Source: Dehalococcoidia bacterium (GTDB lineage: Bacteria; Chloroflexota; Dehalococcoidia; Dehalococcoidales; UBA1222). From it: a stretch of DNA of 32,377 nucleotides. The notes under the pieces are model-generated. The model saw only the letters and a list, made by a program, of their open reading frames with translations. It was not told where the DNA came from and did not search any database. This document shows, one piece after another, positions 2,146 to 13,524 of the stretch. The position numbers and the translations under genes are program-made. Where the stretch lies: positions 1-32,377 of the forward strand of contig WREQ01000013.1 of NCBI GenBank assembly GCA_009779255.1, read 5' to 3'. Positions within the stretch are counted from its first letter, which is position 1. The number at the start of each line of letters is the position of its first letter.

Positions 2146-2346
2146 TTACGTACCGTTGGGTATCAGGCGCTGAATACGCTTTCTGTCACTTGGATGCAAC
2201 GGAATCATCTCGTCAAACAGGGTTTTGCTGCGGTATGACTTGTTACGGCGCAGATGGCTTTTGCCACCCTTCATACGCATGATCTTACCGCTACCGGTGA
2301 TATGGAACCGGCTGCTGGCCCCCTTATGTGTTTTAATCTTCGGCAT
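2146..2346 (-). CDS. rpmI: Ribosomal protein bL35
   Basis: 66 residues from MPKIKTHKGASSRFHITGSG, the standard bL35 start. The chosen ATG has GGGGAG about 8 bases upstream; the longer frame adds eight non-family residues and is rejected. The start lies inside the last codons of infC (14-base overlap), so translation is probably coupled. The basic tail with LRRNKSYRSKTLFDEM is family-typical. Confidence 0.96.
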   Translation of the reverse strand: MPKIKTHKGASSRFHITGSGKIMRMKGGKSHLRRNKSYRSKTLFDEMIPLHPSDRKRIQRLIPNGT

Positions 2347-2908
2347 TTTGTAACTCCCCGGTTTCTTCAACTGAATCTTCTTTTATCTTGCCCTGCTTCG
2401 GCACCAGCGGCGCCAGTATGGCATGCAGCCTGGCACCCTCGCGCACCGGTGTTTTTTCAACAGTGGAGACATCCGACAGTAGCTGTGTCATGCGCTCAAT
2501 CAACTTGATTCCCAGCTCTGGATGAGTATTCTCACGGCCGCGAAACATAATGGTTACCTTTACCTTGTCCCCATCTTCCAGCAGCTTGCGAGCGGTTCTG
2601 GCCTTGGCGTCAAAATCATGGTTGCCAATCTTAGGACGCAACCTGATTTCCCGAAGCAACGCCGTCTTCTGGCTCTTGCGAGCCTCGCGCTCTTTCTTTG
2701 TCTGCATGTACTTGAATCTGCCGTAGTCCATAAGACGGCAGACCGGCGGCACCGCCGTCGGGGCAACCTCCACCAGATCCAATCCGGCCTTATCGGCCAC
2801 TTCGCGAGCCTGGTACAGCGGCATTACTCCGAGCTGCTCGCCTTTATCCCCGACGAGCCGCACCTCTCTGCCCCGTATCACCTGATTAACGCGTAATTCT
2901 TTAACTAT
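2333..2908 (-). CDS. infC: Translation initiation factor IF-3, probable AUA start
   Basis: IF-3 binds the 30S subunit, prevents premature 50S joining and proofreads the start codon. The N-domain (REVRLVGDKGEQLGVMPLY), linker and C-domain (IRLRPKIGNHDFDAKAR) are all present. The first canonical codon, GTG at 2881, has no ribosome site and would cut the conserved N-terminal strand. Reading upstream adds IVKELRVNQ, matching the usual IF-3 start, up to an in-frame stop at 2927-2929. No ATG, GTG or TTG occurs there. The only plausible initiator is ATA at 2906-2908, about 11 bases after GGAGG. Rare AUN starts are the known basis of infC autoregulation. This gives 191 residues and is inference from context. 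Confidence 0.93.
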   Translation of the reverse strand: MVKELRVNQVIRGREVRLVGDKGEQLGVMPLYQAREVADKAGLDLVEVAPTAVPPVCRLMDYGRFKYMQTKKEREARKSQKTALLREIRLRPKIGNHDFDAKARTARKLLEDGDKVKVTIMFRGRENTHPELGIKLIERMTQLLSDVSTVEKTPVREGARLHAILAPLVPKQGKIKEDSVEETGELQNAED

Positions 2909-2969: not shown

Positions 2970-4736
2970 TTATAACCCGAAGCCTTCGGCTTTGTCCACA
3001 ATCGTTTTGGCAACCGCCGTTTTGAAAGCAGCAAAATCAAGATTATTCTTCTGTTCCCCGCTGCGAAGGCGTACCGAAACCGTCCCACTGGAGGACTCTT
3101 TTTCACCAATAACGACCATATACGGCACTTTCCCCAATTGTGCTTCACGAATTTTGGCACTCATACGATCAGATCGGGCATCCAATTTCACTCGTACCCC
3201 TGCATCCCTTAGCTCTCTTTCAATGCTCCGGGCGTAATCGATAAAGCTGTCGGTCACCGGTATAATCACCGCCTGCACCGGCGCCAGCCACACCGGAAAA
3301 GCCCCCGCGTAATGCTCAAGCAGGAAGCCTATCAACCGTTCGTGAGTGGACAACGGCGCTCTGTGAATAATCAGCGGGCGCTCTTTTTCGCCGGATTCAT
3401 TGGTGAACTCAAGTTCAAAGCGCTCCGCCTGGGCGAAGTCGACCTGATTTGTAGCCAGAGTGAACTCCCGGCCGATGGCGCTCCTGACCTGCACGTCGAT
3501 TTTAGGGCCATAGAAGGCAGCCTCATCGGCTATTTCAATAAAGGGAATGTTGTTGTCCCTCATGGCACTGCGCACCATATCTTCAGTCTTGAGCCATAAT
3601 TCCGGGTTGTCGACATATTTTTTGCCCAATCCATCCGGTGTATGTGTGGACAGGCGCATGAAATATTCTGAAATATTGAAGACCTTGAAGTATTCAAGAT
3701 AGAGATTGATGACCGACACGAACTCGTGCGCAAACTGCTCTTCGGGGACATAGATGTGAGCGTCGTTCATCTGCATCGAACGCACCCGCATCAAGCCAAA
3801 GAGTTCTCCCGATTTTTCATACCGATAGCAGGTGCCGTACTCGGCCAGTCTCAGAGGCAGGTCACGGTAACTGCGCGGCCTGCTAGCAAAAATCTTGTGA
3901 TGCATGGGGCAGTTCATTGGTTTGATGTAATAACGCACACCCTCAAGTTCCATCGGCGGGTACATGCTATCGGCATAGTACGGCAAATGCCCGCTGTGCA
4001 AAAAGAGATTTTCTTTGCTGATATGTGGAGTCTTGACCCGCACATAGCCATTTTTGAGCTCGATATCCTTGGCAAGTTTTTCCAGCTCCTCTATCATGGC
4101 GCCGCCGTTGGGCAGCCATAACGGCAGCCCTGGCCCTATTTCATCGTCAAAGGTGAATATTTCCAGTTCTTTTCCTAGTTTGCGATGGTCACGCTTGGCG
4201 GCTTCTTCCTGCTGTTTCAGATATTCATCAAGCTCTTCCTGAGTGGCAAAAGCCGCGCCATAAACGCGTTGCAACATGGGACGCTTCTCGTCGCCGCGCC
4301 AGTACGCTCCTGCAATCGAGGTCAGTTTAAACACCTGTATCGCACCGGTGAAGGAGACATGCGGTCCGCAACATAAATCCACAAAGCTTCCGCTGCGATA
4401 CAGAGAAATCGCCTCGTCCTCTGGTATTTCGTCAATAAGCTCCAGTTTGTAGGGCTGCGAAACCATAATGCGGCGCGCCTCTTCCCTGCTTATTTCCTCG
4501 CGGACGAAAGAAGCGTTATTCCGGATAATAGCCACCATGCCCTCAGCGATTTTAGGAAGGTCCTCCGGTGTCAGGGTGCGAGGCAGATCAAAATCGTAGT
4601 AAAATCCATTCTCGATTGCCGGCCCGATGCCGAGTTTGGCACCCGGGAACATTTCCAGCACCGCCTGCGCCATTACATGCGAAGCGGAATGCCGCATGGC
4701 TTCAATATTGATGTCTTGCCTGTTATCAGAACTCAT
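2970..4736 (-). CDS. thrS: Threonyl-tRNA synthetase lacking the TGS domain
   Basis: Class II synthetase charging tRNA-Thr. 588 residues from the ATG at 4736 (GAAGG 7 bases upstream; the TTG two codons earlier is less likely). Visible are the editing domain opening with MRHSASHVMAQAV and carrying the SVDLCC-type FVDLCCGPHVSFTG segment, the catalytic core with MNCPMHH (zinc cysteine), the motif 2 region RLAEYGTCYRYEKSGELFGLMRVRSMQMNDAH (residues approximately 305-335), and the C-terminal anticodon domain. The usual N-terminal TGS domain (about 60 residues) is missing, so the protein starts directly with the editing domain. It is the first gene of the operon with infC, rpmI and rplT, 61 bases upstream of infC. 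Confidence 0.96.
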   Translation of the reverse strand: MSSDNRQDINIEAMRHSASHVMAQAVLEMFPGAKLGIGPAIENGFYYDFDLPRTLTPEDLPKIAEGMVAIIRNNASFVREEISREEARRIMVSQPYKLELIDEIPEDEAISLYRSGSFVDLCCGPHVSFTGAIQVFKLTSIAGAYWRGDEKRPMLQRVYGAAFATQEELDEYLKQQEEAAKRDHRKLGKELEIFTFDDEIGPGLPLWLPNGGAMIEELEKLAKDIELKNGYVRVKTPHISKENLFLHSGHLPYYADSMYPPMELEGVRYYIKPMNCPMHHKIFASRPRSYRDLPLRLAEYGTCYRYEKSGELFGLMRVRSMQMNDAHIYVPEEQFAHEFVSVINLYLEYFKVFNISEYFMRLSTHTPDGLGKKYVDNPELWLKTEDMVRSAMRDNNIPFIEIADEAAFYGPKIDVQVRSAIGREFTLATNQVDFAQAERFELEFTNESGEKERPLIIHRAPLSTHERLIGFLLEHYAGAFPVWLAPVQAVIIPVTDSFIDYARSIERELRDAGVRVKLDARSDRMSAKIREAQLGKVPYMVVIGEKESSSGTVSVRLRSGEQKNNLDFAAFKTAVAKTIVDKAEGFGL

Positions 4737-4799
4737 TCGCAACCTTCTACGCCCTCTCCGACGTCATGTCAGGGGCGTCTTACGTCATAACCAGCGTTT

Positions 4800-4829
4800 A
4801 TTGTATCAGCATATGCCGGCAAACACCAA
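4800..4829 (-). promoter_or_regulatory. Promoter of the thrS operon
   Basis: TTGGTG (4824-4829), an 18-base spacer and TACAAT (4800-4805). The leader to the thrS ATG is only about 55 bases, too short for a T-box riboswitch. Confidence 0.55.
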
Positions 4830-4830
4830 C

Positions 4831-4867
4831 AAAAGAAAGACACGGTTTCTACCCGTGTCTTTCTTTT
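4831..4867. terminator. Strong bidirectional-looking terminator
   Basis: A perfect 15-bp stem (4831-4845 with 4853-4867) with a 7-base loop. Its arms end in A/T runs on both strands. On the minus strand it lies about 45 bases after the split YedE gene and directly upstream of the thrS promoter, so it insulates the two units. Confidence 0.85.
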
Positions 4868-4912
4868 ATAACCACGCCTGCCCAACGCAGGAAATTCCGA
4901 TTCACCGCAGCG

Positions 4913-5404
4913 CTAATCGGGGAAACGCAGTGTCAGCAGTTGCAGATAGGGCACGACAACCACGTTAAAGAACACCACCCCGGCCAATAATCCCGTCAGA
5001 TATATAATACCAGACAGGCGTCCCTCACCAGCCATAACATGTTGACGGAAAGGACATCCCTCCGCCATCACCGAGAAATAAGCCATGAAAAACGCCCCCA
5101 CCGCGCTCAATGGAATAAGAATCGCAGGCGTGACATCAAGCCCATCCTTGAGCATCGGCATGAATTGCCAAGTGCCAGCTTTGAAGTCGGATAGATTGCC
5201 GCCAAGCATGTTAACTAAGGCAAAACCCACTACGGCGCCGACGAAAACACCAATAAGGCCTTTGAGGCGATAGGCATCCCTTACCAGAAAGAAATCGCGT
5301 ATGCCGGAGATGGTGCAAAAACGCGAGCGCTGCCCCAAGTAGCCCACGATGATACCGATGAATAGGGTCGCCAGTCCAATTTTCCAAGCAGCAATTCCGG
5401 TCAT
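4913..5404 (-). CDS. YeeE/YedE-family membrane protein, C-terminal half of a split transporter
   Basis: 163 residues from MTGIAAWKIG; the longer frame to 5539 only repeats the upstream gene in another phase. The start overlaps the stop of the preceding gene as ATGA. It has about four to five membrane segments, with GQRSRFCTISGIRDFFLVRD after the first and AEGCPFRQHVMAGEG in the middle. These are the conserved RFC and GCP(F/L)R cysteine motifs of the YeeE/YedE sulfur-transport family (known members import thiosulfate, and selenium is proposed for the YedE branch). Full-length relatives, including the one at 9163-10302 here, carry both halves in one chain, so this is a two-gene version. Likely works with the upstream half in the membrane. 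Confidence 0.88.
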   Translation of the reverse strand: MTGIAAWKIGLATLFIGIIVGYLGQRSRFCTISGIRDFFLVRDAYRLKGLIGVFVGAVVGFALVNMLGGNLSDFKAGTWQFMPMLKDGLDVTPAILIPLSAVGAFFMAYFSVMAEGCPFRQHVMAGEGRLSGIIYLTGLLAGVVFFNVVVVPYLQLLTLRFPD

Positions 5405-5955
5405 CGCGTTCTCCTTACTTTCCACTTGATATACAGGCAGGCCGCCACCACCCCCAAGATCATCATGCCCATCATCAACATGGCAAAATACATGCCGTAA
5501 GCCGACAGCACCGCCGTGCGGATGGGGCACGAACCCCACAAAAGACCTACGTTTATGATAACAAAACCGAGAATGAAGGCCAGCACGTTGTCGCGCACCG
5601 GTCCGCGGCGGAACTTGAATTCCTTGTTGCGCACCGAAGCGATGACGGAGCCTATAATGAAGCCCACCGAAGTTAACACCGGCACCTCCACGAAAATACT
5701 GTGAAGGGTGTAATCAGTGTTGAAGATATTGTTAAGAAACCAGTTAATCAGATTAACCGGATGCGACACGGCGCAAATACCATCGCCGGCCGGAGGCTGC
5801 AAACCGAAATACCCCTGCACCACCGCCGCCAACAGCCCCATGGTGACTCCGGTAATCAGCGCCATGTTGCCACTAAGCTTGAAGTTTGGCTTCTTAAACT
5901 TGAAGCTCGGCTTCCAGCGCCCCGGCTTTTCAGAAGGTGAGCCGACCTGATCCAT
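5401..5955 (-). CDS. YeeE/YedE-family membrane protein, N-terminal half of a split transporter
   Basis: 184 residues with a basic cytoplasmic head (about 30 residues, Lys/Phe-rich) and four to five membrane helices. Family cysteines appear in GDGICAVSHPVN (about residue 60) and in WGSCPIRTAV (about residue 142), which corresponds to the first CP motif of full-length YedE. A clear GGGAGG-class ribosome site precedes the ATG. It overlaps the C-terminal half by 4 bases, which would give equimolar synthesis of the two halves. The last gene pair of unit B; cargo (sulfur or selenium species) cannot be told from sequence. Confidence 0.87.
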   Translation of the reverse strand: MDQVGSPSEKPGRWKPSFKFKKPNFKLSGNMALITGVTMGLLAAVVQGYFGLQPPAGDGICAVSHPVNLINWFLNNIFNTDYTLHSIFVEVPVLTSVGFIIGSVIASVRNKEFKFRRGPVRDNVLAFILGFVIINVGLLWGSCPIRTAVLSAYGMYFAMLMMGMMILGVVAACLYIKWKVRRTR

Positions 5956-6000
5956 AGAGCAACCTCCCTTTTAACTTTTATCGCTGCCGCGCAGCCGAAG

Positions 6001-6870
6001 TTATTTGTTGAGCACCTTTTTTACCGCTTCGGGTATGAACGGGATAAACTGGGCGATGGTAGTGGCCGGATTGGGTTTAGCCAGCTCCCCGGCAGTACGG
6101 TTGATTTTACAGGCAGCAGCACAGGCCTCAGCCACGTCCATCCCGCCGGATATGAGCGCCGATACCACCCCGGTAATCGTATCTCCGGTACCGCCGATAG
6201 GCTCCAGTTCCGGCACATTGGGTTCTTTTATGACAGATACCACTTTGCCCTCGACAATTACGTGGTCAATAGGCGCTTTAACCAGCATATATCTGGGAGC
6301 ATCTCCATTATCGTAGGCTTCCTGGCTTAACTTGGGCACCTCGGTCTGGTCGACATTGAAAATGAAGTGCTGCACATATGCCGGATGGGCGGCATCAGGA
6401 TCAGCCAAGAAACTCAATTCACCCGGGTCGGGAGTGAACAGATCAAACTTTTGCGAGAATTTGACAGCCTTGGCATTCAGGAGCGCCCCGGCATCAGTGA
6501 TCAGAAACGGACGATTGGGTATGCTATGCGCGGCGTTTATAAGGTTAGTAAAAGGATCGCGGGTGGGAAGGATATAATGCAACGTCATCACCGACGGAGG
6601 CGTTTTGACAATTTCTTCCGTCAGATATTTGAGCAGCTTGATGGTGCCATCGCCCATCCCGATATCGCCAATAACAGCGGCATAAGGCTCCTCAATGCCA
6701 GCGGCCTGACAAGCCGCTGACGCCGCTGAAATCATGGCTGCCGTTCCCAGCATCACATACTTCCCCTCGAGCGCGTAATCGCCGATGGTGAGCTTGTCCG
6801 GCTGGTAATGCACCTTGCCGAAGGTAATGGGCAGGCCTTCCATGGGGATAGTTCCAACTAAAAGCAACAT
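6001..6870 (-). CDS. Ribokinase-fold protein (PfkB or NAD(P)HX-dehydratase-like)
   Basis: 289 residues. The C-terminal part carries IGGTGDTITGVVSALISGG (about 225-243), the ribokinase-superfamily signature with the catalytic Asp (about residue 230) and the anion hole. A central FLITDAGALLNAK and LFTPDPGELSFL match the substrate/nucleotide region of the carbohydrate-kinase/YjeF-C branch. The reaction is unknown: a sugar or cofactor kinase and an ATP/ADP-dependent NAD(P)HX dehydratase are both possible. GGGGGAG lies 7 bases upstream of the ATG, only three bases after the preceding gene. A shorter, mutated paralogue is encoded at 8417-9094. Being locked between S/Se carrier and transporter genes suggests a role in that pathway. 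Confidence 0.75.
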   Translation of the reverse strand: MLLLVGTIPMEGLPITFGKVHYQPDKLTIGDYALEGKYVMLGTAAMISAASAACQAAGIEEPYAAVIGDIGMGDGTIKLLKYLTEEIVKTPPSVMTLHYILPTRDPFTNLINAAHSIPNRPFLITDAGALLNAKAVKFSQKFDLFTPDPGELSFLADPDAAHPAYVQHFIFNVDQTEVPKLSQEAYDNGDAPRYMLVKAPIDHVIVEGKVVSVIKEPNVPELEPIGGTGDTITGVVSALISGGMDVAEACAAACKINRTAGELAKPNPATTIAQFIPFIPEAVKKVLNK

Positions 6871-6873
6871 CTT

Positions 6874-7431
6874 CTATCTCCCCCTCTTAGAGGTTTCCTT
6901 TTTGTAGATTCCCAGCGCCTTTTCATAGGCATGTTCCAGCGTATAGGCGCAAATTGTGCGCCCCAAGCTGCGAGGACGCGGCCCCTGCCCGATAACCGTC
7001 CCGTAAAGCTGCATACCCAGATACGGAATATCCGGACAGCCGCCACCGGAAATATTCACGATAACGCCGCTACCCTTCTGATAGGTGATTTTCATGTTGC
7101 CGCAGCGCACCATTACATAGTCGCCGTAGTCCACAGTCTTGATAAGGGTGGTAAGATACACCGGAATCATCTTGGCGCCTTTGGGCATGAAAAGGATGTC
7201 GAGTATCATGACGCCTTTTTCGATGAGAATGTTCTCGGCGGCGTCGACATCGGTGGCATCCACTTCGACCGCCAAGTCGCAGCCGGTACGATATTCCACA
7301 GGGGGAGCCACCTCTCGCGCCTGAATGGACACTTCCTCAAGAACAGGCTTGGCGCGCATGGCATGATAGATATAATCAAACACAATTAACGCTTTATCTT
7401 TTTCTTCTTCTGACAATCCAGGTACCTCCAT
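6874..7431 (-). CDS. DUF3343-like S/Se carrier domain with a conserved C-terminal extension
   Basis: About 185 residues from an ATG at 7431; a longer frame to 7527 would include the promoter and is rejected. The start has no strong ribosome site and stays uncertain. The first 80 residues follow the DUF3343 (putative Se/S carrier) pattern: a hydrophobic strand, HAM, a helix with LEEVSIQAREV, a proline, then RTGCDLAVEV with the single conserved cysteine, and a DAAENIL helix. The remaining 100 residues form a second, Gly-rich domain (NISGGGCPDIPYLG and GPRPRSLGRTICAYTLEHA), which I do not recognise. The gene opens unit B, four bases before the ribokinase-fold gene. The cysteine is a candidate for holding a persulfide or selenide. 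Confidence 0.6.
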   Translation of the reverse strand: MEVPGLSEEEKDKALIVFDYIYHAMRAKPVLEEVSIQAREVAPPVEYRTGCDLAVEVDATDVDAAENILIEKGVMILDILFMPKGAKMIPVYLTTLIKTVDYGDYVMVRCGNMKITYQKGSGVIVNISGGGCPDIPYLGMQLYGTVIGQGPRPRSLGRTICAYTLEHAYEKALGIYKKETSKRGR

Positions 7432-7466
7432 CGCGTCATAATGCGGGTCATCCCCAATACGCAGCA

Positions 7467-7496
7467 ATTTTATTACAGTATAAAAGCGGATGTCAA
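7467..7496 (-). promoter_or_regulatory. Promoter of unit B (DUF3343-like gene to split YedE)
   Basis: Perfect TTGACA (7491-7496), 18 bases, TAAAAT (7467-7472). It lies directly downstream of the unit A terminator, so the two halves of the locus are separate transcription units. Confidence 0.65.
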
Positions 7497-7528
7497 CACT
7501 TGGTGCGTAGCACATGCGGGAAGGCAAA

Positions 7529-7562
7529 CAAAAAATCCCCCTGTAAGCAGAGGGATTTTTTG
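7529..7562 (-). terminator. Terminator of unit A (YedE-TusA-YedF)
   Basis: A 14-bp stem with one mismatch (7529-7542 with 7549-7562), GTAAGC loop, A/T-rich outer arms providing a T run on either strand. It starts about 20 bases after the yedF stop. Confidence 0.8.
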
Positions 7563-7583
7563 TTTCAGCGCGCCGATGATGTC

Positions 7584-8177
7584 TTAGATTTTGATAATCT
7601 TGCCTGCTTCAAGCAGGGAATTAACAATGTCGTACATGTTGCCAGTGATGCCGAATTTGAGCTTGTCGATAATGTTATAATAGTTAAGGCAGGTGCCGCA
7701 TGCCACTATTTCAATACCGTCCCCTGACAACGCCGCCAGACTGTCCAGAACATCCGACCCTTCAACGACAAGTCTGACCCCGTTATTGATAAATATGATT
7801 TTATCTGGCTTGGGTTCGGAGTCATGCAGCGTATTGAGAAACGCCTTCATCAGGATGCCACCCAACATGTCATCGCCCTCGCCCAGTTTATCAGTGGTGA
7901 TGAACACCACCACCCCTCCAGCAACAGACGCAGCTATCTCCGTTTTGCTGGCGGCTTCCGGATTGCGCGTAATGTGCATATAAAACAGGTTTTCGCCCCT
8001 GTCCTCGATTTTAATGTCGTGGCCACGGCTCTGCACGAAGCGGCGCACGTTGTCGCGGTTGACGACATCATCCACAATGACCATCAGCTCATCTTCCTGC
8101 GCCTGCTCCAGCGCCTTCTTGGTGTTAATTACCGGCACCGGGCAATTCTGTTTGCGACAATCTATCTCAACAACCAT
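7584..8177 (-). CDS. yedF: Sulfurtransferase-like selenium metabolism protein YedF
   Basis: 197 residues with two domains. Residues 1-72 are a TusA-like domain: CRKQNCPVPVINTKKAL carries the CPxP cysteine (C12), followed by the VVDDVVNRDNVRRFVQSRGHD pattern. Residues about 85-197 are a DsrE-like domain with GDDMLGGILMKAFLNTL and a second cysteine pair in VACGTCLNYY. This two-domain layout is the YedF type, which in many anaerobes sits with selD or selenium-transport genes; the proposed role is to pass selenium or sulfur between proteins. AAGGAGG lies 6 bases before the ATG, ten bases after the tusA-like gene. No selD is in view. Confidence 0.9.
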   Translation of the reverse strand: MVVEIDCRKQNCPVPVINTKKALEQAQEDELMVIVDDVVNRDNVRRFVQSRGHDIKIEDRGENLFYMHITRNPEAASKTEIAASVAGGVVVFITTDKLGEGDDMLGGILMKAFLNTLHDSEPKPDKIIFINNGVRLVVEGSDVLDSLAALSGDGIEIVACGTCLNYYNIIDKLKFGITGNMYDIVNSLLEAGKIIKI

Positions 8178-8186
8178 AGAGCCTCC

Positions 8187-8402
8187 TTATGATTTGGGAG
8201 TCAGCTCCAGATGAAACTCTCCGTCTTTTGACTCTGATTTTACCGCATATCCCTTGCTCTCCGCCAGACGCGTCACATGGTCTATGGCACTGCCGCCATC
8301 AACCTTAACCAGCAGCACCTCGCCCGGATGAGACGCCATGGCTTTCTGCACGCGCACCAACGGTATGGGACAGGCCAACCCCAAAGCATCTACTTCAAAC
8401 AT
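8187..8402 (-). CDS. TusA-family sulfur carrier protein
   Basis: 71 residues, the family's usual size. MFEVDALGLACPIPLVRVQKAM holds the invariant CPxP cysteine (C11) at the end of the first strand, followed by the LLVKVDGGSAIDHVTRLAESKGY pattern. Members accept sulfur as a persulfide from cysteine desulfurases or related donors. A strong GAAGGAG ribosome site precedes the ATG. It lies between the degenerate ribokinase-fold gene and yedF in unit A, and is often paired with YedE-type permeases. Confidence 0.92.
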   Translation of the reverse strand: MFEVDALGLACPIPLVRVQKAMASHPGEVLLVKVDGGSAIDHVTRLAESKGYAVKSESKDGEFHLELTPKS

Positions 8403-8416
8403 AGCTTTTCTCCTTC

Positions 8417-9094
8417 TTATTTGGCATTATCCGTATAACACACGCCCGCCCAGGCGCAGTAGTTCTGTTTAGCCACCACCGGAATCAGGTCGATGATTTC
8501 CCCAATTCCGGCCACCGTTTGCGCTGCCGCGTTGTAAGTACGACCAGCATAAACGGCTGCGGTTTCCGGCTCAAGGCCGGTATAAGCCAGCGCCGACAGC
8601 ATTCCGATGACAACCTCTTCCGAACCTTCAAGTTCCGCCCCTGCCACACCGGCTTTTTCGACAGACGCCAGGAGTTTGTCGTCACGGAATATATACGCCA
8701 ACCCGTCCCCACGAGCAGACAGCATTCCGGCGCCGGCAACAAGCAGTGGAGACGTGGAACAGACGCCGCTCTCGCGCAATTTTTCAAACTGCGCCACGTC
8801 CTGCAGACTGCGGTGCAAAACCAGCACCTCCGGAGACATTTCCGAGGTATGCCCGGCAAGATAGCTGTAAATCTCCCGCGAGCCTTCGCCATCATTATCA
8901 CTAGCGACAATGACATGCGGAGCATCCAACCTGAAGTAGCTGGTGATAGACAATGCCACGCTTACCATAGCTCCGAATCCCTGCACCCGCGCCATGCGCA
9001 GGTCGCCAACACACACGGAGTCCCCATCATGCCGCGCCTGTCCAAAGACCGACGGTAAATTCATTTCAGATACTGCGCCGCAAAGAAGAATCAT
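8417..9094 (-). CDS. Degenerate paralogue of the ribokinase-fold protein, catalytic motif lost
   Basis: 225 residues. It aligns by eye with the protein at 6001-6870 over its full length: both start M(I/L)LL-G, share a VGDL/IGDY segment at about 30, an IVAS/AVIGD-(N)DGEG/GMGDG segment at 63-72, PEVLVLHRSL versus PSVMTLHYIL at 88-97, and a closing SALA-TGLEPETAA versus SALISGGMDVAEA helix. Where the relative has GGTGDT, this protein has GSEEVV (157-162), so the catalytic Asp and anion hole are gone, and about 60 internal residues are missing. It gains a tail with YCAWAGVCY (two cysteines). I infer a non-catalytic partner or a chalcogen-binding derivative; a drifted enzyme with new chemistry is the alternative. 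GGGAGAGG precedes the ATG. Confidence 0.65.
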   Translation of the reverse strand: MILLCGAVSEMNLPSVFGQARHDGDSVCVGDLRMARVQGFGAMVSVALSITSYFRLDAPHVIVASDNDGEGSREIYSYLAGHTSEMSPEVLVLHRSLQDVAQFEKLRESGVCSTSPLLVAGAGMLSARGDGLAYIFRDDKLLASVEKAGVAGAELEGSEEVVIGMLSALAYTGLEPETAAVYAGRTYNAAAQTVAGIGEIIDLIPVVAKQNYCAWAGVCYTDNAK

Positions 9095-9162
9095 TGAGTC
9101 ACCTCTCCCGATTGAATTACAGGCTTGGCAAGTTTATCGGTATTATATCATCCCACCGAATC

Positions 9163-10302
9163 TCAAGCCGTATCTTCCCGCATGGTGAACCCGATACCGA
9201 TACAGAAGACCAAGCCGATAATTACCGCTATCGGGGCATTTTGGCCAATCGCCCCTGCGGCACCGGCGCTGGATGCAATCGCAAAATTCATGGCGAGAGC
9301 GCCACCGGCAATGTATCCCAGCACGCCAATGCCGGCATCGGTATCGCCTTCACCGGCCAGCACCGTAGTGCGCAACGGACAGCCGCCCATCTGGGAAGCC
9401 GCCAGGCCGACCAACACGAAACCGAGGAAACTCCAGACTATCTGAGACCAGATAATACCGTCGGTATTTTCATACGGCAAGGCAATCGGCTGATTGAAAA
9501 ATCCTACGTTATAGTTTACATCGATGCCGGATATCACCAGACCACCGACGCCGAAGTTGCCAGCCACCAGATTGGCGACCACCACGCCAGCGAGGAATGC
9601 CACAAAACCGGCGAACAAGTAGAAATCCCTGGTCAGGAAAATATCGCGGAAGCCGCCGATAGAGCAAAAGCGAGTGCGCTGTACGATGCAGCCAACCACC
9701 AGACCGAGACCCAACCCCAGCCACGGGTTAACATGCTGGGAGCCAGGACCGGTTTCGCTGAACGACAGCGCGCCGGATTTGATGAAAAGCAGCACCAGCA
9801 AAGCCATCATCAGCAGCGGCATGATATACCCGACCGCCTTAGGCATTTTTTTGGCGCGTCCCAGAGAGAAACCTTGCCTCAGGAAGAAGACGCCTATCAG
9901 GACGCCGACAACCAGACCGGCAACGCCTATCAGCGCGCTCATGTCGCCGCCACCTAGCCTCAGCGTCATGCGAGTGGGACAACCGAGAAAGACCATCGTG
10001 CCCACAATAACACACATGCCAAGGATAAAACGGACGATCGGCGAAGAGCCGCCGCGTGGACGGAATTCTTTAAAGATCATTGATGAGCCAAGCGCGCCCA
10101 GAACGATGCCCATGATTTCGGGGCGCAGGTACTGCACGGCGGCGGCTGAATGATATTTGAGCGCGCCGGCAATATCGCGCAGGAAGCAGGCGACGCAGAT
10201 GCCCATATTCAGTGGATTGCCACAGTTAACCGCCAGCGCCCCCAGCACACCGAAGATAAAGCCGCCCAGGATTATCCATTTGCTTTTGAGAAAAAACTTC
10301 AC
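9163..10302 (-). CDS. yedE: YedE-family putative selenium (sulfur) transporter
   Basis: About 379 residues and roughly ten membrane helices. Conserved cysteine motifs, in order: ACFLRDIAG (about 38), FLGCPTRMTLRLGGGDM (about 105), QRTRFCSIGGFRDIFLTRD (about 210) and MGGCPLRTTVLAGEGDTDAG (about 310). These match the YedE branch that neighbours YedF and TusA in anaerobes. I prefer the GTG at 10302, which has GGAGG 5 bases upstream and gives MKFFLKSKWIILGG; an ATG at 10314 is possible but its own ribosome site is poor. First gene of unit A, divergent from the TusA-like gene at 10707. Cargo could be a selenium species, thiosulfate or another reduced sulfur compound. Confidence 0.9.
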   Translation of the reverse strand: MKFFLKSKWIILGGFIFGVLGALAVNCGNPLNMGICVACFLRDIAGALKYHSAAAVQYLRPEIMGIVLGALGSSMIFKEFRPRGGSSPIVRFILGMCVIVGTMVFLGCPTRMTLRLGGGDMSALIGVAGLVVGVLIGVFFLRQGFSLGRAKKMPKAVGYIMPLLMMALLVLLFIKSGALSFSETGPGSQHVNPWLGLGLGLVVGCIVQRTRFCSIGGFRDIFLTRDFYLFAGFVAFLAGVVVANLVAGNFGVGGLVISGIDVNYNVGFFNQPIALPYENTDGIIWSQIVWSFLGFVLVGLAASQMGGCPLRTTVLAGEGDTDAGIGVLGYIAGGALAMNFAIASSAGAAGAIGQNAPIAVIIGLVFCIGIGFTMREDTA

Positions 10303-10376
10303 CAAAACCTCCATTTAACCCATCCAGCTCTTGCCATACAGCCTAATGATAAGAGAATTATTCGCTCAGCATAAGT

Positions 10377-10406
10377 ATTATATATGCACCGTTGGGGGAA
10401 AGTCAA
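10377..10406 (-). promoter_or_regulatory. Promoter of unit A
   Basis: TTGACT (10401-10406), 18 bases, perfect TATAAT (10377-10382), about 65-70 bases upstream of the yedE start. Confidence 0.75.
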
Positions 10407-10535
10407 TACCACATTGCCGGAATTTTTCCAAGTTCGTTCAGGCAGATGGTGCCGCATTAAAGACACGTTGTTCGTGGTGAGTTGGCATGACAGAGGAAGT
10501 GCGATAGCTATTAGATATCAATCCCCATCCCCAAA

Positions 10536-10596
10536 TGTCATTGCGGGCTTGACCCGCAATCCAAGAGGGACGTGAATCCATGCTGGCGGAATGACA
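10536..10596. repeat. Short MITE-like palindromic repeat
   Basis: TGTCATT at 10536-10542 and AATGACA at 10590-10596 form terminal inverted repeats. Inside is the hairpin ATTGCGGG-6-CCCGCAAT (10540-10560) and a CCATGCTGG piece also found in the longer repeat near 29020. It separates the divergent promoters of the S/Se locus. Confidence 0.6.
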
Positions 10597-10647
10597 ATGG
10601 AGGGATAAGGTGGAAGCCAAAAGCTAAATACTAAATAGCTGATTATC

Positions 10648-10676
10648 TTGACAGGACGCCGCCGCCACGATAAATT
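10648..10676 (+). promoter_or_regulatory. Promoter of the divergent TusA-like gene
   Basis: Perfect TTGACA (10648-10653), 17 bases, TAAATT (10671-10676), 30 bases upstream of the ATG. Confidence 0.7.
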
Positions 10677-10706
10677 AAACACAGCGACTATAAGGAGAGG
10701 TGACTT

Positions 10707-11009
10707 ATGGCCGAAATGACTGCCGCCGCCTCGCTAGACACCTGCGGCAAAATCTGCCCGGAACCAAACATCATGATTAAGGACAAGCTGCCGGAAATCA
10801 AGCCGGGAGAAATCCTTGAAGTTGTAGGCGATGTGCCCAACAAGCGCAGCATGGAGCGCTTCGTGCGCTTCCGCGGGCACGAGTTGGTAAGCTCAACCGT
10901 CGACGGCGACATCTTCACCATGCTGGTTCGCAGGGCCGAAAACGAACGCACCGATATTCCCCTGTCTCAATGCACCTTCCTCAACCCAGGTGAACGACCG
11001 CTGATGTAG
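10707..11009 (+). CDS. Divergent TusA-like carrier with extra cysteines
   Basis: 100 residues with AGGAG 9 bases before the ATG. The core follows the TusA fold pattern: LDTCGKICPEPNIMIKDKL (residues 10-28) carries the CPxP cysteine plus a second Cys four residues before it, then EILEVVGDVPNKRSMERFVRFRGHEL. The C-terminal 20 residues (after RAENERTD) are an extension with another Cys near residue 89. Usual TusA proteins have one essential cysteine; CxxxC here could form a disulfide or bind metal. It has its own promoter, back-to-back with unit A, and is followed by the CRISPR-like remnant. Confidence 0.8.
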   Translation: MAEMTAAASLDTCGKICPEPNIMIKDKLPEIKPGEILEVVGDVPNKRSMERFVRFRGHELVSSTVDGDIFTMLVRRAENERTDIPLSQCTFLNPGERPLM

Positions 11010-11913: not shown

Positions 11914-12708
11914 TCACAATACTTCTGCGACACTTTCATACAAATCTGGCAGGCAATTATGTCGCAGCCTGAACTTAGTACCATGATTGTGACCAGTTCT
12001 GGCGTCAAAGTCGACGTAGAGAGTTCCATTCTCCAAAGCTTGCAGAAACTTTTCAAAACCAAACTTCTTAAGCATTAACACACTAGAATATCTGTAAAAT
12101 TCCTTGCCATTTTCCCGTTTTATTTCCGCACGAGCGTAAAAAGCATTCAGCAATTTTGTTCCTGCTTTATGCTCCAAATCAACAAATCCCCAATACGGTT
12201 GTGGCGATAACTCACTAAGTCCAATTCTCCTACCCACTTGTTCGAGCCAACTCGCATGCCTGTTATCAACGCTTGCAGCGTCAAAGGAAATTAAAATCTT
12301 CTGTGCTTTTCTATCGATTACAACCTTAAAACCACGATCGCTTCGCGTGATTGTGCTAATGGTCTGCCTAAAGCTCATCTCATTAGCGGTATATTTACCT
12401 CCAGCGTCATTGTGCGCCCAACCATAGTTCAATAAAAGAACTGTCGGGACAAATTTAACAGCTCGCGGGCTTGGTTCCATATGAAAAAGCGTCGTTAGCG
12501 AAGTGGTATTACCTCTTTGGGTTTTCAGTTCCCATTCAGCAGCATTCGGAATTGGCAAATTATTCTCTTCAATACCAAGCAGATCTTCAAGAGTGTTTCC
12601 AACCCCGCCAGCGTTGCCATGGCGATGATTTTCAACCCAGCCTAAAGCCTTTATCTCTTTGAATTTCCCGATGAGATCTTCCTTTGTGTACAGTGTTGGA
12701 TTAGGCAT
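11914..12708 (-). CDS. MvaI/BcnI-family type II restriction endonuclease
   Basis: 264 residues. The N-terminal third carries GNAGGVGNTLEDLLGIEENN (31-50) followed by NAAEWELKTQRG (55-66), whose E-x-K (E60, K62) is the MutH-like catalytic signature of the MvaI/BcnI group. Members cut CCWGG or CCSGG-type sites as monomers. The target of this enzyme cannot be read from sequence. It follows the methyltransferase by 6 bases, the common arrangement for a coupled type II system. Lower GC than neighbouring core genes and its position by tRNA-Leu fit horizontal transfer. Confidence 0.85.
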   Translation of the reverse strand: MPNPTLYTKEDLIGKFKEIKALGWVENHRHGNAGGVGNTLEDLLGIEENNLPIPNAAEWELKTQRGNTTSLTTLFHMEPSPRAVKFVPTVLLLNYGWAHNDAGGKYTANEMSFRQTISTITRSDRGFKVVIDRKAQKILISFDAASVDNRHASWLEQVGRRIGLSELSPQPYWGFVDLEHKAGTKLLNAFYARAEIKRENGKEFYRYSSVLMLKKFGFEKFLQALENGTLYVDFDARTGHNHGTKFRLRHNCLPDLYESVAEVL

Positions 12709-12714
12709 TAATAG

Positions 12715-13524
12715 TTATATTAACCTTTGTTGGCTGGTTTCTTTTTCAATCCGGCTTTTGGCCACATCACAGTAAGCCGGTGAAATATCAATGCCGATAT
12801 AGTCAATTCTATTCCGCAACGCCGCAACGGCTGTTGTGCCTGATCCCACAAATGGGTCAAGAACCATTCTCGCTGTCGTAGATGAAATAATTCTGTCAAT
12901 GAGTTTTATAGGGAATGGTGCCGGATGTCCATTTTTCATCTCTTGAGTAAACTCCCATATATCACCCCGTGCATTAGCTTTAGGCGCCAGCTCAAAGTTT
13001 GGTTTTGCAATCAAATAAATCACTTCGTAAGTGGGGAGAAAATATCCGGGATTGAAATTAAGCCCGCCTTTCCGTTTCCAAATGATAACTTGGCGAACAG
13101 GAAACCCGTGAACTATGTCATGCCGATCTTGTAATAACCCTCCCTGAACCCGCCACTTATGATTATAGAAAATTGCTCCGTTATCAGGAATGATTCTCAT
13201 CATTTCTTCCAAACAACCACGCTGCCATTTTACATACTCATCATGCGGCATGTTGTCAGCATGGTGCGAATACCCGTTTTGCAAAGCCGCGTTAGCCCAC
13301 TTCCCCCTACTGCCATTTTTCATGCCATTTCCAGTAGAGTTTTTAAGATTATACGGTGGCGACGTGACAACTAGTTCCACAGATTGTGCCGGTATTTTTT
13401 GCATCACCTCGACGGCATCGCCGCAAATAATTTTGTTGCGGAAAGCAACCAGCGTATCCACTGTTGTTGGTGTCTTTTCAGAAACATCAAATAGCGTCCC
13501 AGTCATAGAAGAAAAACCAGCCAT
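12715..13524 (-). CDS. DNA methyltransferase, beta class, probably N4-cytosine specific
   Basis: 269 residues. The catalytic motif TSPPYN (54-59) comes before the AdoMet motif DPFVGSGTT (about 223-231), which is the beta-class order. S-P-P-Y rather than D-P-P-Y points to N4-cytosine, as in the methylases that pair with MvaI and BcnI. YIGIDISPAYCDVAK after motif I is the usual motif II/III region. It protects host DNA from the endonuclease encoded 6 bases downstream. The start at 13524 has a modest ribosome site; an internal ATG six codons later is an alternative. Confidence 0.88.
   Translation of the reverse strand: MAGFSSMTGTLFDVSEKTPTTVDTLVAFRNKIICGDAVEVMQKIPAQSVELVVTSPPYNLKNSTGNGMKNGSRGKWANAALQNGYSHHADNMPHDEYVKWQRGCLEEMMRIIPDNGAIFYNHKWRVQGGLLQDRHDIVHGFPVRQVIIWKRKGGLNFNPGYFLPTYEVIYLIAKPNFELAPKANARGDIWEFTQEMKNGHPAPFPIKLIDRIISSTTARMVLDPFVGSGTTAVAALRNRIDYIGIDISPAYCDVAKSRIEKETSQQRLI

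What the first reader, a model, noticed from the sequence alone, without database searches (positions are those of the whole stretch)
4913..11009. Two-unit chalcogen locus with duplicated YedE, carrier and ribokinase-fold genes
Seen in sequence: unit A is YedE, ribokinase-fold relative, TusA, YedF; unit B is a DUF3343-like carrier, ribokinase-fold protein and a split YedE; a TusA-like gene is divergent. Each unit has its own promoter and terminator. Known: YedE/YedF/TusA/DUF3343 families occur together in sulfur/selenium handling. Inference: the two units are parallel pathways (for example for two cargoes, or transport plus relay), and the ribokinase-fold proteins are an undescribed component.
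Basis: partly seen in the sequence, partly recalled or inferred. Interest (0 to 1): 0.72.

Follow-up and report, generated by a model that had tools for sequence, protein, structure and literature searches.

The report
Selenium-handling operon with an undescribed kinase-like partner
The locus belongs to a conserved bacterial gene set that very probably imports and hands over selenium; alongside the known parts it always pairs an undescribed ATP-binding, kinase-like protein with a two-domain carrier, and in some relatives of this bacterium that carrier itself appears to contain selenium.

Summary
The ribokinase-fold gene (here RK) is not a local oddity. A collection-wide scan gave 87 RK genes in 79 loci from Chloroflexota, Bacillota, Thermodesulfobacteriota, Acidobacteriota and archaea. 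In 80 of 82 testable cases the carrier gene lies directly upstream, mostly overlapping or within 4 nt, usually with YedE, TusA and YedF, and often with selD and the selenium LysR regulator. One genome has YedE-carrier-RK-TusA-SelD-SelB in a row.

The carrier is a two-domain form of DUF3343 with an invariant SGGG-C-PDIP motif. In ten distinct Dehalococcoidia genes that Cys is an in-frame TGA followed by a SECIS-like hairpin, so the carrier is a predicted selenoprotein not found in the sources held here. Using the carrier as bait, 29 of 29 copies had RK next door.

RK has a ribokinase-superfamily fold but is not NnrD, which is encoded separately. In the window only unit B has an intact carrier-RK pair. 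Unit A has lost its carrier, and its RK copy lost the GGTGD site.

Best reading: a transporter-linked selenium relay feeding SelD, with RK as the ATP-dependent partner of the carrier. Its reaction is unknown. SelD-lacking archaea with the pair argue against a strictly selenium-only role.

The parts
10707..11009 (+). divergent TusA-like gene (100 aa, CPEP motif)
   Evidence: PF01206 52 bits; divergent TusA gene upstream of unit A recurs in relatives
10648..10676 (+). promoter-like site of the divergent TusA-like gene
   Evidence: TTGACA-17-TAAATT, 10/12
10377..10406 (-). promoter-like site of unit A
   Evidence: TTGACT-18-TATAAT, 11/12
9163..10314 (-). yedE-A, full-length YedE-family putative selenium transporter
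   Evidence: TIGR04112 399.7 bits, cut-off 200
8417..9094 (-). RK-A, degenerate ribokinase-fold paralogue; the internal segment with TPDxxE is missing and GGTGD reads EGSEE
   Evidence: alignment A1; 28% to RK-B
8187..8402 (-). tusA (71 aa, CPIP motif)
   Evidence: PF01206 59.3 bits
7584..8177 (-). yedF
   Evidence: TIGR03527 221.3 bits, cut-off 110
7537..7555 (-). terminator-like hairpin after unit A
7467..7496 (-). promoter-like site of unit B
   Evidence: TTGACA-18-TAAAAT, 11/12
6874..7416 (-). two-domain Se/S carrier (DUF3343/PF11823 N-domain plus new C-terminal domain)
   Evidence: PF11823 49.3 bits; invariant C45 and C126 in 72 sequences
7036..7038 (-). TGT codon of the invariant Cys of SGGG-C-PDIP, replaced by TGA in ten distinct relatives
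6001..6870 (-). RK-B, intact ribokinase-superfamily protein, 3 nt after the carrier
   Evidence: PF01256 37.4 bits; model pLDDT 92.5; Foldseek
5401..5955 (-). half-size YedE/YeeE subunit (first gene)
   Evidence: below curated cut-offs, PF04143 19.7 bits; paired half genes recur in unit B relatives
4913..5404 (-). half-size YedE/YeeE subunit (second gene, 4-nt overlap)
   Evidence: PF04143 36.3 bits; TIGR04112 68 bits, below the cut-off of 200
4829..4869 (-). terminator-like hairpin (17 pairs) after unit B

Best explanation
The locus is a selenium acquisition and relay cluster. YedE, or the half-size YedE pair in unit B, moves a reduced selenium species across the membrane (inferred). TusA, YedF and the two-domain carrier take it over on cysteines, or on a predicted selenocysteine in some relatives, and pass it towards SelD for selenophosphate and selenocysteine synthesis (inferred from neighbours and co-occurrence). 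RK is a ribokinase-superfamily ATP-binding protein that works as the obligate partner of the carrier; it probably activates or releases the carrier-bound selenium compound at ATP cost (inferred; weakest step). In this genome unit B holds the only intact carrier-RK pair, while unit A is reduced to YedE, TusA, YedF and an RK remnant that has lost its active-site motifs.
For: RK scan of genome contigs: 79 loci in several phyla. Carrier directly upstream of RK in 80/82, mostly overlapping or within 4 nt; YedE nearby in 41/47 and TusA family in 58/72 testable cases. SelD directly downstream in 18/66. One locus (L050) has YedE-carrier-RK-TusA-SelD-SelB. Neighbouring regulator is NF040786 LysR_Sec_metab, 282 bits, cut-off 250. 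SelD over the cut-off in 39/44 and SelB in 39/44 RK genomes. The window's own genome has a TGA-containing selD and selB on one contig. Peptoclostridium acidaminophilum, which I know as a glycine-reductase selenium organism, has YedE-TusA-DUF3343-RK next to selD. RK with YedE in Chloroflexota: Fisher p=3e-5; RK with SelD in the phylum of Moorella: 15/15 against 183/284, p=0.0017 (species are not independent). Carrier as bait: 29/29 have RK next door. Cys-to-TGA exchange with a SECIS-like hairpin. RK motifs of the active-site class (TPDxxE, K198, GGTGD) invariant in 86 sequences, TPDxxE read as T146 P147 D148 E151.
Against: No experiment exists. Two archaeal genomes with the carrier-RK pair show no SelD over the cut-off, and neither do two Nostoc genomes, where the locus is decaying. 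SelD is common in Chloroflexota (240/301), so co-occurrence there says nothing. YedE also occurs without RK (L138-L141), so RK is an option, not a core part. RK's substrate and even catalysis are unshown.
Confidence: 0.68

Rival explanations
1. The carrier-RK pair serves sulfur (sulfane sulfur or thiosulfate) rather than selenium, and the selenium neighbours reflect shared chemistry; unit B with half-size YedE would be the sulfur branch.
For: YeeE/YedE relatives include thiosulfate transporters TsuA; SelD-lacking archaea carry the pair (L102, L105), one with half-size YedE genes. Half-size YedE scores below the selenium YedE cut-off.
Against: SelD, SelB and LysR_Sec_metab links; full-length partner is the selenium YedE equivalog; the unit B carrier itself is a predicted selenoprotein in relatives.
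Confidence: 0.17
2. RK is a non-catalytic ATP sensor or scaffold that gates the carrier or transporter.
For: RK-A in the window has lost catalytic motifs yet keeps an open frame of 225 codons and its C-terminal tail.
Against: Motifs of the active-site class are invariant in all 86 RKs aligned; RK-A decayed where the carrier gene was lost.
Confidence: 0.2
3. RK is simply an NAD(P)H-hydrate dehydratase placed by chance in the operon, as database annotation says.
For: Annotated NnrD in Nostoc and Peptoclostridium records; weak match to TIGR00196 and PF01256.
Against: 35.5 bits against a cut-off of 129.85; a separate canonical Nnr lies over the cut-off in 24/27 RK genomes, including the window's; operon partner conserved across phyla.
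Confidence: 0.03

Closest known systems
YedE/YedF/SirA-like/DUF3343/LysR_Se selenium gene set (Lin et al. 2015, PMC5322559)
   Same: Same transporter, TusA-type proteins, DUF3343 domain, LysR regulator and SelD neighbourhood
   Different: That paper describes DUF3343 as 80-100 aa proteins and, in the passages found, names no ribokinase-fold partner; here the carrier is about 180 aa with a second domain and is paired with RK
NAD(P)H-hydrate dehydratase NnrD (YjeF C-terminal domain, TM0922, YxkO)
   Same: Fold superfamily; TPHxGE-like and GGxGD motifs align
   Different: Different N-terminal half, TPDxxE instead of TPHxGE, about 15% identity, TM about 0.6, no epimerase domain, far below the family cut-off
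TsuA/TsuB (YeeE/YeeD) thiosulfate uptake
   Same: Membrane protein plus TusA-like partner
   Different: Window YedE scores 24.7 bits or less for the TsuA models against 399.7 for seleno_YedE; no RK or two-domain carrier is part of it to my knowledge
PmpA/PmpB-type half-size YeeE/YedE pairs (from my own knowledge)
   Same: Two small adjacent Sulf_transp subunits
   Different: Here downstream of a carrier-RK pair; assignment to Pmp families not tested

Membership tests
seleno_YedE (TIGR04112) | score over curated cut-off 200 | tested here: met
   yedE-A 399.7 bits
seleno_YedE (TIGR04112) | half-size unit B genes over cut-off | tested here: not met
   68.3 and 18.7 bits
YedF (TIGR03527) | score over cut-off 110 with TusA and DsrE-like parts | tested here: met
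   221.3 bits over residues 5-197
Se/S carrier DUF3343 (PF11823) | N-terminal domain over gathering score with conserved Cys | tested here: met
   49.3 bits over residues 46-111 of the 217-aa frame; C45 invariant
Se/S carrier DUF3343 (PF11823) | typical length 80-100 aa | tested here: not met
   about 180 aa with an extra conserved domain; length norm from PMC5322559
NnrD (TIGR00196) | score over curated cut-off 129.85 | tested here: not met
   35.5 bits; separate canonical Nnr at G000:C24
Carb_kinase (PF01256) | score over gathering 27 | tested here: met
   37.4 bits, C-terminal part of the profile only, positions 92-229 of 242
ribokinase superfamily | fold | tested here: met
   AlphaFold pLDDT 92.5; 104 PDB matches at E<=1e-3, best TM0922, ribokinase, phosphofructokinase-2, ThiM
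ribokinase superfamily | ATP-dependent kinase or dehydratase activity | not testable with these tools
   -
selenoprotein (carrier) | in-frame TGA at a Cys position in the window gene | tested here: not met
   codon TGT at 7036-7038
selenoprotein (carrier in relatives) | in-frame TGA at conserved Cys, conserved downstream frame, SECIS-like hairpin, SelB in genome | tested here: met
   10 distinct genes; hairpin 92% paired, loop invariant; SelB in G306, G307, G311. Sec insertion itself not shown
Sec-using organism (window genome) | selD, selB, tRNA-Sec | tested here: inconclusive
   selD with TGA and selB found; the tRNA-Sec model's best hit is a tRNA-Ser; assembly 77% complete

The most novel reading that the evidence does not exclude
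RK is a new ATP-dependent enzyme of selenium metabolism that acts on selenium held by a dedicated two-domain carrier, which in some lineages is itself a selenoprotein, so that selenium is taken up, carried and activated protein-bound on its way to SelD.
Probability: 0.3. Interest if true: 0.85.

Novelty: new variant of a known kind. Interest (0 to 1): 0.62.

Why it matters
How reactive selenium is imported and handed to SelD without running free is an open question. This cluster names two testable new components, RK and the C-terminal domain of the carrier, in organisms with named strains (Moorella, Peptoclostridium), and a predicted new selenoprotein family. It also corrects a standing misannotation of RK as NAD(P)H-hydrate dehydratase.

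Tried and rejected
NnrD identity for RK: rejected. Split YedE as a frameshift: rejected, the two-gene form recurs in the unit B clade. RK as local curiosity: rejected. SelD co-occurrence within Chloroflexota: uninformative, 240/301 have it. Minimum-free-energy folding of 52 nt after the TGA did not favour the proposed hairpin (z-scores -0.05 to -1.31), because the UGA-proximal bases can pair with the loop; the case for it rests on codon invariance and the G-C to U-A exchange. One such exchange type is modest covariation: the count of changed pairs does not exceed the shuffles. Carrier fold: no PDB match at E<=1e-3, so the C-terminal domain is unassigned. tRNA-Sec in the window genome: the only hit over the cut-off is a tRNA-Ser. 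A single TGA in YedE of L106 was not taken as Sec.
Full report
What is in the window. On the minus strand lie two units. Unit A is yedE-A (10314-9163), RK-A (9094-8417), tusA (8402-8187) and yedF (8177-7584). Unit B is a carrier (7416-6874), RK-B (6870-6001) and two half-size YedE genes (5955-5401, 5404-4913). A TusA-like gene (10707-11009) is divergent. The strongest sigma-70-like matches stand before the three transcription units, and terminator-like hairpins follow both minus-strand units. The carrier frame starts at 7527 in a mechanical list, but homologues begin at the residue encoded by TTG 7416, which has GGAGGT in front; this start is inferred.

RK is conserved beyond this genome. A profile of six RKs scanned against one genome per species gave 79 loci, and the maps are. 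Of 87 RK genes, 80 of 82 testable ones have the carrier directly upstream, most overlapping or within 4 nt; the larger gaps are carriers cut at a TGA, apart from a few truncated ones. YedE is within 2.6 kb in 41/47, TusA-family genes in 58/72, SelD directly downstream in 18/66, and a divergent LysR in 14/56. The LysR tested (L089) is NF040786, the selenium-associated regulator, and the Moorella YedE scores 500 bits for TIGR04112. In L050 the order is YedE, carrier, RK, TusA, SelD, SelB. Peptoclostridium acidaminophilum carries YedE-TusA-DUF3343-RK beside selD, with RK annotated as NAD(P)H-hydrate dehydratase.

Selenium or not. SelD passes the cut-off in 39 of 44 RK genomes and SelB in 39 of 44. 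The SelD exceptions are two Nostoc genomes, two archaea and one unnamed bacterium that has SelB. In the Nostoc plasmid the carrier is cut to 59 codons and no YedE is found next to RK, which looks like decay after transfer. Because 240 of 301 Chloroflexota have SelD, the fair test is another phylum: in that of Moorella all 15 RK genomes have SelD against 183 of 284 others, p=0.0017. RK and full-length YedE co-occur in 3 genomes of 301 where 4 have RK and 7 have YedE, p=3e-5. These tests ignore relatedness. Four Chloroflexota with YedE but no RK have TusA, a 73-74-aa DUF3343 protein and/or a NifS-like gene instead. So RK goes with the long carrier, not with YedE as such. The reverse test agrees: with the carrier as bait in the window's genome and 40 relatives, 29 of 29 carriers had RK next to them.

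The carrier. Its N-terminal domain is PF11823; the C-terminal part has no family. Across 72 sequences C45, C126 (in SGGGCPDIP) and C155 are invariant. In seven scan loci and four further loci from relatives C126 is an in-frame TGA, followed by about 50 conserved codons and, where the contig reaches it, a normal stop. Ten of these are distinct, down to 63% nucleotide identity, and one lies in the window's own family (G641). After the TGA, codons CTC GGT CTG are invariant although 4- or 6-fold degenerate; only one other such codon of 50 is invariant, the GGC just before the TGA (for the first seven). They form the loop side of a hairpin GGCUC-GGUCU-GAGCC whose loop starts 18 nt after UGA. Three pairs never vary and one shows G-C to U-A, accompanied by amino-acid changes W/S to Y/R. 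From memory, the loop GGUCU also occurs in the E. coli fdhF SECIS. Cys-coding relatives, the window included, lack it. I found no mention of a DUF3343 selenoprotein: DUF3343 is named in four papers held, PF11823 in none, and a 2026 selenoproteome review has no such entry under the terms searched.

RK. The model (pLDDT 92.5) matches TM0922, ribokinase, phosphofructokinase-2 and ThiM at TM about 0.5-0.6. GGTGD, TPDxxE and K198 are invariant in 86 sequences. Sequence search reaches only TM0922 and a thiazole kinase. It is not NnrD: 35.5 bits against 129.85, and a canonical Nnr exists elsewhere in 24 of 27 genomes.

Two units. The 13 unit B RKs are one clade (SH-aLRT 99), and the partners of Sec-type carriers in the tree form a subclade. 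Units A and B sit together in several Dehalococcoidia (L030, L031, L034-L037, L042, L069). In the window unit A has lost its carrier gene, leaving 68 nt between yedE-A and RK-A, and RK-A lacks the TPDxxE segment and GGTGD. Loss of the carrier and of the RK site together fits a functional pair.

How it most likely works. Shown by sequence: gene content, pairing, conservation, fold. Inferred: YedE moves a selenium species, TusA-type proteins and the carrier hold it on Cys or Sec, RK spends ATP on the carrier-bound compound, and SelD receives it. The direction of transport, the chemical form and the RK reaction are not known. SelD-lacking archaea with the pair (L102, L105) leave a sulfur role open.

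Novelty. The selenium neighbourhood of YedE, YedF, DUF3343 and LysR is known (PMC5322559). New here are RK as the constant partner of a two-domain carrier, and the predicted Sec form of that carrier.

Noticed in passing
window 11914-13524 (-): Type II restriction-modification pair: MvaI/BcnI-family endonuclease and N6/N4 DNA methylase.
   Followed up: partly
window 2970-4742 and 2333-2881 (-): A threonyl-tRNA synthetase-like frame and IF-3 lie directly downstream of unit B; L069 also has a thrS-like gene downstream of its unit B.
   Followed up: partly
L033 and L048 / L113 (Nostoc): RK about 70% identical to Dehalococcoidia unit A RKs sits in Nostoc (one on a plasmid) without SelD; carrier truncated or fused, apparently decaying after transfer.
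   Followed up: partly
L105:7528-9906 and L102:8455-9873: Nitrososphaerota archaea without SelD over the cut-off carry the carrier-RK pair, one with divergent half-size YedE genes.
   Followed up: partly
L106, YedE region 1705-2577: In-frame TGA in a YedE gene at a position aligned with Gly; pseudogene, recoding or error.
   Followed up: no
L138:3337-4485 and L141:6819-7982: NifS/selenocysteine-lyase-like genes beside YedE in loci that lack RK.
   Followed up: no
window 8417-9094 (-): RK-A keeps the C-terminal tail NYCAWAGVCY, shared with an intact unit A RK, despite loss of the active site.
   Followed up: no
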